A DNA stretch of 64,000 nt from Bacillus sp. ISL-51 (GTDB lineage Bacteria; Bacillota; Bacilli; Bacillales; Bacillaceae): the NCBI RefSeq assembly GCF_018613535.1, contig NZ_JAGGQB010000007.1, positions 58,842 to 122,841 of the forward strand, written 5' to 3'. A program made the translations under genes and the position numbers. Shown here in pieces: positions 2,824 to 9,663 of this stretch (positions are counted from its first letter, which is position 1; every line of letters starts with the position of its first letter). The notes beneath the pieces were generated by a model that did not search any database, was not told the DNA's origin, and saw only the letters and a program-made list of their open reading frames with translations.

Positions 2824-3294
2824 TCAGCGTTTCACCTCTTCAGCCTCCAGAAACAGTTCATCCAGCCGCTCCAATGACTCCTGCTTTTCAAAACTGCTGA
2901 ACCACAAGTCATCATACGCATCCAAAATGCGGTAATGGTGCGAAATCAAATGCTGCTGTAAGCGGAACTCTCCTTTTTTCTCGATTGCTTTCCACCATAC
3001 CTTGCCGCCCATCGTCTTTCCTTTAGGCCTGTCAATCGTGCGGTGGGCAACCGTTTCTATTACCTCCAGCGGATCATCTCCCAATACAGATTGCAGCGCC
3101 TCACTTGTTCTGAACAGCGCGCACACCGCCACAACATGCGCCCATCCCGCAAGCGAGCGGCCTTTCTCAATCTGCACCAGCGACTTTTTTGAAAGCCCGA
3201 GCACATCTGCCATTTTCTCTTGGGTATACCCCCTCTCCGACCGGATACGCTTTAACTGGACTGAGACAAGCTCAGTGATATAATCTTGATCCAT
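2824..3294 (-). CDS. XRE-family helix-turn-helix transcriptional regulator
   Basis: The protein has 156 residues from the chosen start. Residues about 10-45 form a Cro/C1-type helix-turn-helix (RSERGYTQEKMADVLGLSKK). The rest is a charged C-terminal domain, ending in a glutamate-rich helix, that I do not recognise. The start at 3294 is preferred over an in-frame ATG 30 bases upstream because GGAGG lies five bases before it. It is divergent from the LXG toxin gene and upstream of the dehydrogenase, so it may control one or both. The target is not shown by the sequence. Confidence 0.85.
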   Translation of the reverse strand: MDQDYITELVSVQLKRIRSERGYTQEKMADVLGLSKKSLVQIEKGRSLAGWAHVVAVCALFRTSEALQSVLGDDPLEVIETVAHRTIDRPKGKTMGGKVWWKAIEKKGEFRLQQHLISHHYRILDAYDDLWFSSFEKQESLERLDELFLEAEEVKR

Positions 3295-3484
3295 CTTAAC
3301 CTCCACACTTATGAATAATGCCATTTTACACCGCCGGGCTCCTTTTTTATCGGAACAATTTTAAATGAATCAAAAGAATCAGTAAAAAAGTACCTTTTTT
3401 CCTCTTTTTCTCAAATCGTGATCAGAAATTGGAATCATCATGGTAAAATACGGGCAGAGAAAATCAGGCGAAAGGACACTGGAT

Positions 3485-5268
3485 ATGAAACTACTCGAAA
3501 CCAGCACTCTCATTCACTCAGCCGACAGCCGTCTGAAAGCTTATCAAAAAACGAGAGATGAAATGGCCGCTCTGAAACAACAGTTTCACGGCATTGCAAA
3601 TATGGACGCCATGACAGGGAGAGGCGCGGACGCCATAAGAGCCTTTTACAATGAACAAGCCTCCGGAGCAGGGCTGTGGCTTGATCTCTTCGACATGAAA
3701 ATTACTTTTTTCAAAAGCATTCCGAGAGAAATAGAACAGGCGGGCTTCGGCCAAAATGATTTGCTGGAAGAATCATTTCTTGAAAGCGAACTGAACCATG
3801 CCGGGCAGAAAGCACACCATATCATCGACGGCCAGCACGACGAGATCAGCCGAATTTTAAGATCAATTGACGATATTCTGTCCTTATCACCGTTTGACAA
3901 ATCCGCGGTCACCGGCAAACTTGACGCTGCCGATCACCAAAAACGGCAGAACACTTACATAAACTCGACGCAAAACTGATGCACGAATACGCTCAATCTG
4001 AAGCGCTTGAGCACGAAGCTGAAGCCTTTTTCCGGACGCTTGCCGACTTAACAAGTAAAGCCGGGGGCCCGCTGTCTTTTAACGCTAAAGCATTTCACGA
4101 CACTGACGTATATAAAAGAAAAGCCGGCATACAAAAACGAGCCCATCAATACATTAAAATCAAACAGCAGGAAGAAACGGCCTTTTTACAGAAAAAACTG
4201 GACCGCACTTCTGACCCGGGGGAATATGTAAACATTGCGGAAGAACTCGGGGCTGACAACATGAACGCCGAACAATTACAATATTACTCAAGCCTCCTCC
4301 AGCTAAAAGCCATGCGCCAAGCCGGACAAATGCTCATCGACGGAGCCAAAGGCATCATGCTGGGGATATGGGACGCAGGAAAAGACGCCGTCATCGGCGC
4401 TTACGATATCGCCGTCTGGCTGCAAAGAGCACAAGGACGCGCGGGAGCGATAGAACAAGCCAAAGCCGGACAAGAACTCATCAGCGCCATTTACAGCGCA
4501 CCGGAAACATTCGATTACATGGTTCAATCCTTCAAAGCCTCATGGAACGAAAACATCATCCACGGCGACACCTACAGCCGCACCCACTACATCGCCTACG
4601 CCGTCGCCTCCCTCATAGGAGCAAAAGGCGCAGGAAAAGTCACCGGGGTGACAAGAGCCGGGAGATTCGTGACGAAGGAAGCGAAGACTTTTATTGCGGA
4701 TCAGAAAAATGCGGCAGCGCGAATTTACGCAAAAGGAAAATCATCAGTTTCTCAGCCATGGCAGCCTGCATTTTCAGGAATCGGAGAACCGTTTTCTCAG
4801 GCGGGGAAAGCGGTTGATGTGAAACAGGAGAGTGTTGTTTATAATAAAAAACAGAGCATCGGCCGGACAACTGGCAATCACAAAAAATCTTTTCTTATAA
4901 AAGGAGATTTACATGTTCATGAATCAAAAGGCGGTCATTTGATTGAACGCCATGTCGGAAAATCGGATGAAGAACTTATAAAAAGATTAGAAGAGAATCC
5001 AAAAATTAAGGGTGCATCAACATTTACTGATCAGAATACAGCTCAACAAATCGTTGATGAAGTGTTACATCAAAAGAAGAAAGAAATAGAAGATTGGCTT
5101 AATCATTCAGTAAAGCCAACTCAAGATTTTTCTTATAACGGACAAGAAATAATCGGAAGAGGAGTAAAAAAAGGATCAACTCGTATAATAGAAATGAAAA
5201 ACGCAAAAATTGTATTAAAAAGAAACAAAGATGGCAGTTTTATATTAACTGGCTATCCGGTTAAATAG
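3485..5268 (+). pseudogene. LXG-domain polymorphic toxin with RNase A-like C-terminus, interrupted by a 1-nt frameshift
   Basis: Two abutting frames together encode one LXG toxin, a substrate of the Firmicutes type VII secretion system (YeeF/YobL family). The first frame (to 3979, start ATG 3485) gives the helical LXG region beginning MKLLETSTLIHSADSRLKAY. The second (open through 5268) gives the rest of the LXG region, a glycine/alanine-rich linker and a toxin tip. The correct frame resumes near 3950, where one missing base restores KLDAKLMHEYAQSEAL. The tip (about 115 residues) has the bacterial CdiA-CT RNase A-like signature: GGHLIERHVGKSDEEL, then SSFTD-like GASTFTDQNTA, VLKRNKDGSF and a final TGYP. 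Base composition becomes AT-rich after about 4840, consistent with a swapped toxin cassette. Downstream lies a matching immunity gene. Unless the frameshift is a sequencing error or is bypassed, full-length toxin is not made. An internal restart at ATG 3979 would lack the N-terminal part needed for export. Confidence 0.85.
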
Positions 5269-5279
5269 AGGTGGGGCAA

Positions 5280-5582
5280 ATGGAGAAGTTAAAAAATGAG
5301 AGTGTAGAGGAAGTAAGAAGTTTTTTGTCTTGTTACTTTCATCAGGATTACGATTCAATGGAATCCGTATACGAAGAATTACTTAATGAAGAATCAGTAG
5401 AATACTTAATCTTCCTGGTCCCTCTTTTAAGGAACTTCATCAATAGTGATTGGTCAATTGAAGATAAAAGTACACTCATAGATGAATGTGCCGATGGAGT
5501 TTACTTTCCTTACTACGAAATGTCTCCTTTAGATTGGTTGAAACAAGTAACAAAAAAAATTGAATTGTACTTAAATATATAG
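5280..5582 (+). CDS. Immunity protein for the RNase A-like LXG toxin (CdiI-like)
   Basis: This acidic 100-residue protein follows the toxin stop after 11 bases, the standard place for a cognate immunity gene. It is rich in D and E (for example YFHQDYDSMESVYEELLNEE near the N-terminus), fitting a binding partner for a basic RNase. The pattern FLxxYFHQDYDS recalls contact-dependent inhibition immunity proteins of the CdiI_2 type; that family call is from memory. The start at ATG 5280 is chosen because AGAGGTGG lies just upstream; an in-frame GTG at 5271 overlaps that site. It shares the AT-rich composition of the toxin tip. Confidence 0.75.
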   Translation: MEKLKNESVEEVRSFLSCYFHQDYDSMESVYEELLNEESVEYLIFLVPLLRNFINSDWSIEDKSTLIDECADGVYFPYYEMSPLDWLKQVTKKIELYLNI

Positions 5583-5592
5583 GCAGGAGAAA

Positions 5593-5658
5593 TTGAGAAT
5601 TATTAAACTGATGTTTAATACAGATGAAAGAAAAATCATCATCTTTATTACAACATAA
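5593..5658 (+). CDS. Possible 21-residue peptide or gene remnant behind the immunity gene
   Basis: GGCAGGAGAAA precedes a TTG that opens 21 codons (RIIKLMFNTDERKIIIFITT) before a stop. It may be the broken start of a further immunity-type gene, which often follow LXG loci as orphan copies. I recognise no family. The rest of the stretch to 5768 shows no gene. Confidence 0.2.
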   Translation: MRIIKLMFNTDERKIIIFITT

Positions 5659-5768
5659 TCCGCGAATGAACAGGCAGTCATTCTTTGTTATTCTTATATC
5701 ATCTAAAGCGATTGATTAGCTCCAACAAGCATGTAATGAAATAAATAACTCTATAAAAAGTAATGATA

Positions 5769-5800
5769 AAAAAGCAGGCAATTCAAAAAACCTGCTTTTT
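5769..5800 (+). terminator. Terminator of the LXG toxin-immunity unit
   Basis: A 10-bp inverted repeat AAAAAGCAGG / CCTGCTTTTT with a 12-nt AT-rich centre ends in a T run on the plus strand. Confidence 0.85.
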
Positions 5801-5914
5801 TATATTTTTTCTGAAACCTTTCGAGCAAAAGAAGTCGGAAACAGTCACCAACTCACTATAGCCAGGAAATTTGTGAAAATGAGTAGCAGCTTTAATGAAC
5901 CATTAAAAAATTAA

Positions 5915-6319
5915 AAGGGACTTTTAAAAGGGGCTAAAACTAGGTGTACTGTTATCGAAGTGACACAGCGGGTGTTTTTATACGGACTGGTGTTTATGAT
6001 TCCCTTTTTGTATATCTTTGATTTCAGACAGGGGCTTCATGCCTTCGCATCACTTTCTAATGTATTCAATATGTTACACCTCGGCATCGGAGCCTCTGCT
6101 GTCTGCTTTGTGATCTGGAATTATTCCGTTTCGGTACTGGGTGCTGTCAAAACGAGCGCTTATATTTATATCGTTCCCGTAGTGACAATCACAGCATCTG
6201 TGGTGTTCCTTCAGGAAAAAATGACGTGGATCGCACTTGCAGGGGGAGCACTCATTTTATGCGGTCTTTATATGTCAGAAATGAAACCGAAGCCAAAGCA
6301 GAATACAGAAAACGTGTAA
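5915..6319 (+). pseudogene. ybfH: Truncated EamA/DMT-family transporter (C-terminal part of ybfH)
   Basis: The open frame encodes about 120 residues corresponding to the second half of a 10-TM drug/metabolite transporter. Visible are a TM helix ([18 protein letters not shown]), then [42 protein letters not shown] and the closing [17 protein letters not shown]. Full members have around 300 residues. No start with a good ribosome binding site exists and the frame is closed upstream at 5912-5914. By synteny it is the remains of ybfH, which in B. subtilis lies between ybfG and ybfI-purT. The accessory island replaces its 5' half and ybfI. It is almost certainly non-functional. Confidence 0.8.
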
Positions 6320-6321
6320 AT

Positions 6322-6368
6322 AAAGCAAGCGATTCCGATTGATGCGTGATCGCTTGCTGTCTTTTTTG
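6322..6368 (+). terminator. Terminator behind the ybfH remnant
   Basis: An inverted repeat AGCAAGCGAT / ATCGCTTGCT with a GT-rich loop is followed by GTCTTTTTT on the plus strand. Confidence 0.8.
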
Positions 6369-6496
6369 ATAAGAAGGCACCCCGCATGCCCGCCCTGACG
6401 TTCCGGACTCTCTCCGAAGTTTCATAGGCGCAGACAAGCTGTCATACGTTTGCCAGCTATGAATGAACGCACATTAAAAGTAATGGAGGGATTACG

Positions 6497-8704
6497 ATGG
6501 ACGAAATGGTCCTGGAAACACAACAATGGCTGAATGATACGTACGGAGGCAGACACGGGTACAACAAAGTGCCGGAAAATGGAAAAACGGGCTGGGATAC
6601 CATTTACGGTCTGACACGGGCGCTTCAAATTGAGCTTGGCATTTCAGAACCTGCCGATAACTTCGGCCCGACGACACAAAGACTGTTCAAACCTTTGAAA
6701 AAGCAATCACCAAATTCAGCATCGACAAACATGAATTACATTTTACAAGGGGCGCTGTGGTGTAAAGGATTTAACCCCGGCGGGTTTTCCGGCGTTTTCT
6801 ATGAGAATACCGAAAGCGCTGTAAAAGAGTTTCAAAAAGCAGCCGGTCTTACCAACCAGGACGGTATCGTCACAGCACTGATTATGAAAGCCTTGCTGGA
6901 TATGAGCGCTTTTCGATTAGTAGCGGGAGGCGACCAACGAATCCGGCAAATCCAGCAGAACCTGAACCGGGATTACAATGATTACATCGGCTTGATGCCT
7001 TGTGACGGATTATATGCCCGCGATACAAACAAGGCTCTCATTTATGCCCTGCAAAAAGAAGAAGGCATGAGTACAAGTGTCGCTAACGGATTTTTCGGAA
7101 ACGGAACGACCAGCTTATGCCCTACCTTGACTCCCGGCGATTCAAGAACAGGCTTTGTTTTGATTGTTCAATACGCGCTTTACTGTAATGGGAAATCGTT
7201 TGATCCCGGTGAATTCGACGGAAAATATGGAGTCGGAGTTGTATCAGCAGTTAAAGCTTTCCAAGAGTTTATGTGCCTGCCGCAAACAGGTTATGCGGAC
7301 ATGCCTACGATTAAAGCTTTATTATCAAGCTCAGGCGATACAACAAGGGCTGCTTCAGCTTGTGATACTGCTGCAATTTTGACGGCAGAGAAGGCTCAGA
7401 CCCTGCGCAGCAACGGTTATAAAGTGGTAGGAAGATATTTGACAGGAAATGTTCGGACCAGCAGCGGACTTACGTCAAAGGCTTTGACGTCAAAAGAGCT
7501 TTCTGTCATTTTTGATGCCGGATTGCGTATCTTTCCGATTTACCAAGATGGCGGCTATGAATCATCCTATTTTGTGAAAGGCCAAGGGACAAGAGATGCA
7601 TACAATGCTGCATCAGCGGCTCGAAGATTAGGTTTCCCATCGGGCACGACCATTTATTTTGCCGTTGATTTCGATGCGTACGATTATGAAGTCACAGACA
7701 AAATCATCCCTTATTTCCAAGAAATCAAGTCGGCCTTTATGAAAATGCAGACATTTTCAACTGCTCCTAAATATGAAATCGGGGTATACGGACCAAGAAA
7801 CATTTGCATCCGGACATTGGAAGCGGGACTGACCAAATATAGCTTTGCGGCAAATATGTCAACCGGCTTCAGCGGTAATCTCGGCTATCCAATGCCAAAG
7901 AACTGGGCCTTCGATCAATTTTACGAAGGAACGATCGGAAGCGGCGCAGGAAGCATTGGCATTGATAAGGACGGATTTTCAGGAAAAGACTCTGGGGTGA
8001 GCAAGGTAACCCCCCCTTCTGATCCTGTTTATGATGCAAGATTAAACACATTGACAAATATTCTGTCAACCATCCCTGCTTTAGAAAATGCACCCGGCCT
8101 AGCAAATATGATGATGGAATTCGGTACAACCGAGACCATTTTAACTTCTCCGAGTTTAGATATTTTATTGTCCACTTCACTTCTTTATACAATTCCGAGT
8201 GAAGGCTCAGCTAATACGATGACAATAACAAACGGCAAACCCGGAGCCTATGTTACTGGTTTATTAGGGGACACACAAACCATTCTTACAGCCTCAGAAA
8301 TCAGTTCTTATCAAAATTTATTAAACAATCTGAGCCTATCTGTAAGAAATGGTTATTTGGAAATGGCAGTAACACCAACTGCTCAATCAATAGATGTTTC
8401 AATAAAAATTTATACACCCGACATTCCGGTAGCGGATGGAACCACAACTGGACTTACGACTATGTTTACGTTTAAAATTAAAACGTATAAAGGTGTGCCG
8501 GCTGTATCTTCTGAAAGTGAATTAGCAAAGAGTTGGGATCTTCTCCCTTCTTCTCTTACAATTGTAGCTGGTATTTCTGCATTCTATTTTACAAGTAAGG
8601 TTCTTACATCTGAAAAACCGGTTGAAAATAAAACAGTAGAAGCAGTAACTGAATTTGCTGCAATATTATTAGCTCTTTACGCTTATATGACTGATCGCTT
8701 CTAA
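6497..8704 (+). CDS. ybfG: YbfG: peptidoglycan-binding and DUF1906 glycoside-hydrolase-like protein
   Basis: The 735-residue protein has no N-terminal signal peptide. Residues 1 to about 280 hold several peptidoglycan-binding-like modules, each with a GxY/F...AVKxFQ core such as AVKEFQKAAGL and AVKAFQEFMCL. Residues about 290-510 form a DUF1906 (Rv2525c-like) TIM-barrel with VVGRYLTG, IYQDGG and IYFAVDFDAYDYE, the acidic segment typical of this fold. The last about 220 residues are of different character: no recognised domain, and a hydrophobic helix near the end (LPSSLTIVAGISAFYF). Length matches B. subtilis YbfG. The ribosome binding site GGAGGG precedes ATG 6497. Cell-wall binding is a safe inference; enzymatic activity is unproven. 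The last third of the gene is more AT-rich than the first two thirds. Confidence 0.9.
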   Translation: MDEMVLETQQWLNDTYGGRHGYNKVPENGKTGWDTIYGLTRALQIELGISEPADNFGPTTQRLFKPLKKQSPNSASTNMNYILQGALWCKGFNPGGFSGVFYENTESAVKEFQKAAGLTNQDGIVTALIMKALLDMSAFRLVAGGDQRIRQIQQNLNRDYNDYIGLMPCDGLYARDTNKALIYALQKEEGMSTSVANGFFGNGTTSLCPTLTPGDSRTGFVLIVQYALYCNGKSFDPGEFDGKYGVGVVSAVKAFQEFMCLPQTGYADMPTIKALLSSSGDTTRAASACDTAAILTAEKAQTLRSNGYKVVGRYLTGNVRTSSGLTSKALTSKELSVIFDAGLRIFPIYQDGGYESSYFVKGQGTRDAYNAASAARRLGFPSGTTIYFAVDFDAYDYEVTDKIIPYFQEIKSAFMKMQTFSTAPKYEIGVYGPRNICIRTLEAGLTKYSFAANMSTGFSGNLGYPMPKNWAFDQFYEGTIGSGAGSIGIDKDGFSGKDSGVSKVTPPSDPVYDARLNTLTNILSTIPALENAPGLANMMMEFGTTETILTSPSLDILLSTSLLYTIPSEGSANTMTITNGKPGAYVTGLLGDTQTILTASEISSYQNLLNNLSLSVRNGYLEMAVTPTAQSIDVSIKIYTPDIPVADGTTTGLTTMFTFKIKTYKGVPAVSSESELAKSWDLLPSSLTIVAGISAFYFTSKVLTSEKPVENKTVEAVTEFAAILLALYAYMTDRF

Positions 8705-8775: not shown

Positions 8776-9663
8776 TTGAATGAAAATCAATCCGCATTTA
8801 ACACAGCAAAACAAACTGCACAAAAAGTGGTAAAATGTCAGAATGATCAAGAAGTAATGGACTTTTTATCTTCGCAAGATTTACATACGCTCAACCTATT
8901 AAAGTATTATTATTCTGCCCCATCATTATCTTTTCAGTTACTTATGAAGATCGCTTTTTCCTGTATAGTAATGGCTTTGATCTTCACTTCTTTCTTGTTT
9001 ATTCAAGTCAAATCACTGATACCTGTCCCAATCTTATCTGATCTTTTACCGGCAGCATTTTCCCTGTTTACAATAGGATGCATTGTGATGTTTTATATGT
9101 ATATTGCACGTGAAAAGAACAGCCATTTGCCCGAAAAGCACATAACCCGAAAAGCTTATTTCGTCCGAATTGTTAATATGATTGATATGAATTTACGGAA
9201 GAAATATGATTCGCTGGCGGCTCATGTGAATGGTATACAAAGCAATCATACAATTGAAGAAACAGTTCAGCAGATCACTGCTTGCAGAAATGATGAAGAA
9301 CTGATGAGATGCCTTGAGAAACAAGATACGAACAGGCTATGCCAATTAAAAGCTATTTTCTCTAAGCCTGTATTTTCTTTATATGAATTTATGAAGTGGA
9401 TTTTTATTGGAAGTATTATTGCTGTTTTTCTGACAGCGCTATTCTCAGGTCAAGTCAGCTATATTCATATCCCCAGTCTTTTTCCTTATCTTCTTCTCTT
9501 TTTGTTTGTTAGAGGTCTTATCTATCTGATTAAACTGCTGCAGCTGTATCAAAAAGGACCTTTGCACTCAATATCACAATTCGCCAGAAACGCCGAACAT
9601 GTCCGGGTGACGGATATGATTGATTTTGTGCTTGAACAAAAATATAAGGAAACAATGAAATAA
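8776..9663 (+). CDS. Membrane protein with two tandem copies of one helical/2-TM unit (YbfF position)
   Basis: This 295-residue protein starts at TTG 8776 behind GGGGG. It consists of two homologous halves. Each begins with a soluble helical segment (CQNDQEVMDFLSSQDLHTLN against CRNDEELMRCLEKQDTNRLC), continues with two TM helices and closes with a motif like VNMIDMNLRKKY or TDMIDFVLEQKY. No catalytic motif is visible. It is downstream of ybfG on the same strand, in the place of B. subtilis ybfF. Function is unknown; a role connected to YbfG, for example as a protective membrane partner, is speculation. Confidence 0.75.
   Translation: MNENQSAFNTAKQTAQKVVKCQNDQEVMDFLSSQDLHTLNLLKYYYSAPSLSFQLLMKIAFSCIVMALIFTSFLFIQVKSLIPVPILSDLLPAAFSLFTIGCIVMFYMYIAREKNSHLPEKHITRKAYFVRIVNMIDMNLRKKYDSLAAHVNGIQSNHTIEETVQQITACRNDEELMRCLEKQDTNRLCQLKAIFSKPVFSLYEFMKWIFIGSIIAVFLTALFSGQVSYIHIPSLFPYLLLFLFVRGLIYLIKLLQLYQKGPLHSISQFARNAEHVRVTDMIDFVLEQKYKETMK

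What the first reader, a model, noticed from the sequence alone, without database searches (positions are those of the whole stretch)
3485..5582. LXG type VII toxin with RNase A-like tip, immunity gene, and a 1-nt break in the delivery domain
Both halves of the LXG toxin are intact in two frames, and one missing base near 3950 separates them. The tip carries the RNase A-like signature (GGHLIERHVGKS, FTDQNTA, TGYP). Composition shifts to AT-rich at about 4840, the border between conserved shaft and variable tip, and stays so through the immunity gene. The restart ATG overlaps the first stop (TGATG), so a delivery-dead but RNase-active fragment might be made inside the cell, which would keep the immunity gene under selection.
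Basis: partly seen in the sequence, partly recalled or inferred. Interest (0 to 1): 0.7.

Follow-up and report, generated by a model that had tools for sequence, protein, structure and literature searches.

The report
Broken bacterial toxin, immunity gene kept
A Bacillus chromosome carries a gene of the LXG toxin family that is split into two reading frames inside its export domain, while its RNase-like tip and the neighbouring immunity gene are intact, so the toxin is likely no longer delivered but the cell is predicted to stay protected against the same toxin from neighbours; this is an ordinary fate for such genes.

Summary
Window 3485-3979 encodes the first three quarters of an LXG domain; 3979-5268 the rest, the shaft and an RNase A-like tip; 5280-5582 a CdiI_2 immunity protein. 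Tip and immunity protein both find their best solved-structure fold match in one complex, the Yersinia kristensenii CDI pair 5E3E, and the four published active-site residues are present. The locus is shared with B. nakamurai and B. siamensis, where the gene is one open frame with another tip. So this is a new tip allele of a known kind of polymorphic toxin, broken in its delivery domain. The break looks recent, and it is the only genuine gene split among those compared in the window. Most likely a recently inactivated toxin whose immunity gene persists or still protects. Interest is low to modest.

The parts
3485..3979 (+). First piece: N-terminal part of the LXG delivery domain (164 aa from the ATG with a Shine-Dalgarno match; ORF could start at 3440), ends at TGA 3977-3979
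   Evidence: PF04740 E 2.6e-31, model 1-156/202; 93.6% identical to the B. nakamurai gene over residues 1-156
3925..3976 (.). Zone in which the reading frame changes
   Evidence: Previous stop of the second frame at 3922, stop of the first frame at 3977; similarity switches frame at about 3940-3952
3977..3981 (+). TGATG: stop of the first piece overlapping a possible restart ATG
   Evidence: Sequence; no Shine-Dalgarno match of 4 nt or more; codon is CTG in L004 and GTT in L005
3979..4839 (+). Second piece, rest of LXG domain and conserved shaft
   Evidence: 80-81% identical to G026 (B. siamensis) and G016 (B. nakamurai) up to residue 287 and 300; 81.6% to L004 over 1-287
4840..5268 (+). AT-rich linker and RNase A-like toxin tip; active-site-equivalent codons His 4951, Arg 4984, Thr 5248, Tyr 5254
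   Evidence: PF18431 E 6.4e-29; 5E3E_B E 8.1e-19; model versus 5E3E_B TM 0.88 by target, 0.76 by query; codons checked
5280..5582 (+). CdiI_2-family immunity gene, 100 aa, own Shine-Dalgarno match (GAGGTG, 6 nt)
   Evidence: PF18593 E 5.2e-10; model's two best PDB matches are 5E3E_A and 5E3E_C; start site
2824..3324 (-). Divergent helix-turn-helix regulator flanking the locus, conserved in the relatives
   Evidence: HTH_31 E 6.4e-10; 96% and 88% identical in L004 and L005
5960..6319 (+). C-terminal 119 residues of an EamA transporter gene, remnant beside the toxin locus
   Evidence: EamA E 5.4e-15; relatives in open frames of 303-319 codons, e.g. G028, G005, G032, G011; next to a ybfG-like gene in G005 and near purT in G032

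Best explanation
This is a chromosomal gene of the LXG (type VII secretion) toxin family whose reading frame is broken inside the delivery domain, leaving an intact RNase A-like tip and immunity gene, so the toxin is likely no longer exported while the immunity protein is predicted to protect against the same toxin from neighbours. Shown: the two frames, the domains, the four active-site residues, the shared locus in two relatives with intact frames and other tips, and the AT-rich tip/immunity block. Inferred: the tip and immunity gene came in together as a cassette that replaced an earlier tip; the break happened recently in this lineage; the tip piece is made little or not at all; the immunity gene persists because the loss is too recent for decay or because it still protects.
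For: Domains. The tip matches CdiA-CT of 5E3E at E 8.1e-19 over 113 of its 114 residues and by fold (TM 0.88 by target). The published active-site residues His175, Arg186, Thr276, Tyr278 (PMC9086364, passages) map, by counting along the alignment, to residues invariant in the 19 tips aligned (window plus 18 proteins that I chose from the 120 listed). The immunity model's best matches are the immunity chains of the same complex, TM 0.66-0.69, though Foldseek E is only 0.23-0.30. Same locus in B. nakamurai and B. siamensis with single open frames of 643 and 658 aa. The same shaft lineage carries EndoU, ADP-ribosyltransferase or unnamed tips in P0002-P0007. Recent break: constraint on the first piece (omega 0.136 versus nakamurai; window-lineage codon changes 5 synonymous, 1 not), no second stop. 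Sequence-quality control: of 49 siamensis ORFs of 100 aa or more with a relative in the window, 46 are whole in one frame; the exceptions are this gene, an ORF lying over tRNA genes and a short ORF opposite a conserved 83-codon one. The identical 429-aa protein is recorded on 3 contigs, the longest 123,268 bases, against 122,841 for the window's contig, so at least one other contig record has the same split. Secretion ATPase EssC is present (1500-codon frame, 1790 bits), with two other LXG genes in open frames of 713 and 610 codons.
Against: The shaft after the break shows more amino-acid change on the window's branch (10 synonymous, 17 not) than on nakamurai's (16, 13), not significantly (p 0.19); against the ADH gene on the same branch (21, 4) the window's shaft differs (p 0.0007), nakamurai's does not (p 0.77). 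That would fit an older loss. The contig records with the identical piece may be the same strain. The tip fold rests on one good model of five (mean pLDDT 72, the others 35-58). The immunity match by plain sequence to 5E3E_A is not significant (E 1.4). No expression, secretion or toxicity data exist here.
Confidence: 0.8

Rival explanations
1. Sequencing or assembly error: the gene is intact in the real chromosome and the locus is a working LXG toxin with an RNase A-like tip.
For: Constraint on both pieces (omega 0.14 and 0.31 versus nakamurai) and no other stop; the two relatives read at this locus have one frame.
Against: Only this gene is split among the genuine genes compared (46 of 49 siamensis ORFs whole, 6 of 7 nakamurai ORFs whole); the identical second piece stands on 3 contigs including one longer than the window's; other truncated copies of this domain exist in relatives (P0123, P0124).
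Confidence: 0.13
2. The second piece is made by coupled restart at TGATG and acts inside the cell; together with the immunity gene it behaves as a toxin-antitoxin pair that keeps the immunity gene under selection.
For: Stop and start overlap as TGATG; the tip's active-site residues and the immunity gene are intact.
Against: No Shine-Dalgarno match at 3979 and none of 5 nt or more at any in-frame start of this piece; ATG absent in both relatives read; 17 of 29 related immunity places lack a complete RNase A tip upstream.
Confidence: 0.05
3. Programmed frameshifting or phase variation makes the full-length toxin from the two frames in some cells.
For: A relative, P0124, is also truncated in this stretch and runs into the same alternate frame (it shares the nine residues NTYINSTQN).
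Against: The two relatives read at this locus use one frame; no long repeat tract at the site (longest run is five A); P0123 departs at a different place.
Confidence: 0.02

Closest known systems
LXG polymorphic toxins of Bacillus (type VIIb secretion; Kobayashi 2021, PMC8321402, passages seen)
   Same: LXG domain, conserved shaft, variable tip, immunity gene directly downstream, EssC in the genome
   Different: This copy is split into two frames inside the LXG domain
CdiA-CT/CdiI of Yersinia kristensenii, PDB 5E3E (review PMC9086364, passages seen; original paper not held)
   Same: RNase A-like tip with the same His/Arg/Thr/Tyr set and no cysteines; immunity protein in PF18593 whose best fold match is this CdiI
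   Different: Delivery part is LXG/type VII, not CdiA two-partner secretion
'Ribonuclease YeeF family' LXG proteins with PF18431 tips in B. subtilis and B. velezensis (P0014-P0101)
   Same: LXG plus RNase A-like tip, 36-39% identical over the second piece
   Different: Different shaft lineage; the window's shaft is closest to proteins with other tips, several named YobL-like. The YeeF studied from B. subtilis subsp. spizizenii W23 is a DNase (PMC7033585, passages seen)

Membership tests
LXG/type VIIb polymorphic toxin | N-terminal LXG domain PF04740 | tested here: met
   E 2.6e-31, positions 1-156 of 202 in the first piece
LXG/type VIIb polymorphic toxin | One continuous frame from LXG domain to toxin tip | tested here: not met
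   Two frames, stops at 3922 and 3977; hence filed as a broken allele, not as a working toxin
LXG/type VIIb polymorphic toxin | Immunity gene directly downstream | tested here: met
   CdiI_2 at 5280-5582
LXG/type VIIb polymorphic toxin | Type VIIb secretion machine in the genome | tested here: met
   EssC TIGR03928, 1790.4 bits against a cut-off of 778.4; other machine parts not tested
LXG/type VIIb polymorphic toxin | Secretion and killing of neighbours | not testable with these tools
   -
Bacterial RNase A family (PF18431, CdiA-CT Ykris type) | Profile and fold | tested here: met
   E 6.4e-29; 5E3E_B E 8.1e-19; TM 0.88 by target, Foldseek E 2e-12; best model mean pLDDT 72, other four 35-58
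Bacterial RNase A family (PF18431, CdiA-CT Ykris type) | His/Arg/Thr/Tyr active site, no disulfides | tested here: met
   Residues invariant in the 19 tips aligned, codons checked, no cysteine in 134 residues
Bacterial RNase A family (PF18431, CdiA-CT Ykris type) | Metal-independent RNase activity | not testable with these tools
   -
CdiI_2 immunity (PF18593) | Profile match | tested here: met
   E 5.2e-10, 40.4 bits against a cut-off of 26.7
CdiI_2 immunity (PF18593) | Fold of 5E3E CdiI | tested here: inconclusive
   Best two fold matches are 5E3E_A and _C, probability 0.99, TM 0.66-0.69, but E 0.23-0.30; plain sequence match E 1.4
Programmed-frameshift gene | Two frames conserved in relatives | tested here: not met
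   Both relatives read at this locus have a single frame

The most novel reading that the evidence does not exclude
The break has turned a delivered toxin and its immunity gene into an internal toxin-antitoxin pair: the TGATG overlap restarts translation, the RNase piece is made in the cytoplasm, and the cell has become addicted to its immunity gene, with repeated breaks in the same domain in relatives being a route by which such pairs arise.
Probability: 0.05. Interest if true: 0.6.

Novelty: new member of a known kind. Interest (0 to 1): 0.25.

Why it matters
It adds an RNase A-like tip to a chromosomal LXG site shared with B. nakamurai and B. siamensis, whose shaft lineage otherwise showed EndoU, ADP-ribosyltransferase or unnamed tips, and shows a delivery-domain break with tip and immunity gene intact. 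That makes it a clean natural case for asking why immunity genes outlive their toxins.

Tried and rejected
Internal start for the tip alone: an AAAGGAG lies at 4900-4906 (read by eye) but the ATG after it (4913) is out of frame, and no in-frame start of the second piece has a Shine-Dalgarno match of 5 nt or more. Plasmid or phage origin of this copy: tblastn of the second piece matches 26 plasmid records (16 Bacillus, 8 Pantoea, 2 Rhizobium; 15 listed) and 20 Bacillus phage records (15 listed), all below 60% identity; the immunity protein matches one plasmid record at 41.8%. Promoter and terminator scans of 3200-6500 gave no excess over shuffles (5 against 6.6, 4 against 3.4). Paper searches on LXG with frameshift (11 papers) or pseudogene (6 papers) showed no account of this locus in their listings; of these I saw passages of PMC8321402 and PMC12935306 only. 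Passages of PMC3482391 and the listings added background; LXG with EndoU and B. velezensis gave 0 papers. The original 5E3E paper is not held. The protein searches are limited by length, so longer carriers of this tip could be missed.

Full report
What is there. On the + strand of a 3.6-Mb genome whose nearest named relatives at this locus are Bacillus, 3485-3979 encodes the first 156 of 202 positions of an LXG domain (PF04740, E 2.6e-31), and 3979-5268 encodes 429 residues ending in a bacterial RNase A domain (PF18431, E 6.4e-29). A 100-residue CdiI_2 immunity protein (PF18593, E 5.2e-10) follows at 5280-5582. The frames change between the stops at 3922 and 3977, and similarity to intact relatives switches at about 3940-3952. 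GC falls from 0.493 before 4840 to 0.322 after it and stays low through the immunity gene (profile).

The tip and its immunity protein. The tip matches the toxin chain of PDB 5E3E, the Yersinia kristensenii CDI pair, at E 8.1e-19. Its fold model (best of five, mean pLDDT 72, first 25 residues unreliable, the other four models 35-58) matches 5E3E_B with TM 0.88 by target and 0.76 by query length. The active-site residues named in a review of that toxin, His175, Arg186, Thr276 and Tyr278 (PMC9086364, passages), map by counting along the 5E3E_B alignment to window codons 4951, 4984, 5248 and 5254 and are invariant in the 19 tips aligned, the window's and 18 that I chose from the 120 proteins listed. 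The immunity protein's plain sequence match to 5E3E_A is not significant (E 1.4), but the two best fold matches of its model (mean pLDDT 80, from two sequences) are 5E3E_A and 5E3E_C (probability 0.99, TM 0.66-0.69, Foldseek E 0.23-0.30). Both proteins thus point to one known toxin-immunity complex, the second less firmly.

The locus. In B. nakamurai (L004) and B. siamensis (L005) the same order purT - iron alcohol dehydrogenase - HTH - LXG is found, with single LXG frames of 643 and 658 aa. The window's shaft is 81% and 80% identical to theirs up to residue 300 and 287 of the second piece, where similarity ends. Proteins with this shaft carry EndoU (P0006, P0007), ADP-ribosyltransferase (P0004) or unnamed tips (P0002, P0003, P0005), while LXG proteins with RNase A tips mostly have another shaft (36-39% identity, P0014-P0101; 33-43% in four genus genomes). 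The window therefore most likely shows a swapped tip/immunity cassette at a shared site. In G039 and G014 an LXG gene with a shaft about 55% identical also lies beside purT. In G032 a full-length EamA gene lies near purT, and in G005 one lies beside a ybfG-like gene; the 119-residue EamA piece at 5960-6319 looks like what is left of such a gene.

The break. It is the only genuine gene of those compared that is split: 46 of 49 siamensis ORFs (100 aa or more, relative in the window at 60% or more) are whole in one frame, and the other two exceptions are an ORF over tRNA genes and a short ORF opposite a conserved 83-codon one; against nakamurai 6 of 7 are whole and the exception is this gene. The identical 429-aa protein is recorded on 3 contigs, the longest longer than the window's own; they may be the same strain. 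The first piece is under constraint (omega 0.136 versus nakamurai, 0.154 versus siamensis); on the window's branch it has 5 synonymous and 1 amino-acid-changing codon differences. The shaft after the break has omega 0.31 between the window and either relative and 0.29 between the two relatives; the window's branch has 10 and 17, nakamurai's 16 and 13 (p 0.19). Against the ADH gene on the same branch the window's shaft differs (p 0.0007), nakamurai's does not (p 0.77), so some relaxation after the break is possible. With no second stop, a recent break fits best.

Breaks recur. A search with the first piece, which by its length limits sees only short proteins, found three relatives: P0124 (154 aa) is truncated in the same stretch and runs into the same alternate frame, P0123 (201 aa) departs from the family sequence further on, and P0125 goes from part of the domain straight to an ADP-ribosyltransferase tip. 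This search is biased towards N-terminal breaks. Second halves without an LXG domain also exist for RNase A-tip genes (P0102, named B. subtilis, and P0104). Short open LXG frames occur elsewhere in the genus, for example 281 codons in G030 and 299 in G038 (a cut list); I did not count them or check their causes.

Why is the immunity gene kept? The restart ATG has no Shine-Dalgarno match of 4 nt or more, no in-frame start of this piece has one of 5 nt or more, and the codon is CTG and GTT in the two relatives, so the TGATG overlap is not shared with them. A search of 44 genus genomes found 38 places with an immunity relative in 26 genomes, the window's own included. Thirty came with flanks (8 did not and were left out), and two of these are the same stretch, so 29 distinct places: 12 (the window's included) have a complete RNase A tip directly upstream, 4 a partial or broken tip and 13 none within about 1.5 kb. 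Limits: divergent tips could be missed, other toxin types were not looked for, one of the 13 is cut by a contig end and one immunity match (L063) has a stop. The 12 pairs support a real tip-immunity pairing; the other 17 show that such immunity genes occur without a complete tip, so an internal poison is not needed. Protection against neighbours, or too little time for decay, is enough.

Secretion. EssC is present in one 1500-codon frame and two other LXG genes lie in open frames of 713 and 610 codons, so the strain likely still uses type VII secretion with other effectors.

Verdict. A new tip allele at a known kind of toxin locus, broken in its delivery domain. Ordinary as biology, useful as a natural test of immunity-gene retention.

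Noticed in passing
5960-6319: C-terminal 119 residues of an EamA transporter gene beside the ybfG-like gene; full-length relatives lie near purT (G032) or beside a ybfG-like gene (G005), so the toxin site may have replaced most of it.
   Followed up: partly
L004 and L005, 5500-7431: The same locus in B. nakamurai and B. siamensis carries similar tips (EndoU in the nakamurai protein P0006), and siamensis has an extra 333-codon ORF between the immunity gene and the ybfG-like gene.
   Followed up: partly
P0123, P0124, P0125: Other truncated or rearranged N-terminal pieces of this LXG lineage, one running into the same alternate frame as the window.
   Followed up: partly
L046, L052, L054, L059: CdiI_2 immunity genes downstream of partial or stop-bearing RNase A tips in other genomes of the genus.
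   Followed up: partly
8776-9663: 295-residue protein with two similar-looking halves (by eye), no Pfam match above cut-off; G039 and G014 each hold more than one matching stretch near their LXG gene.
   Followed up: no
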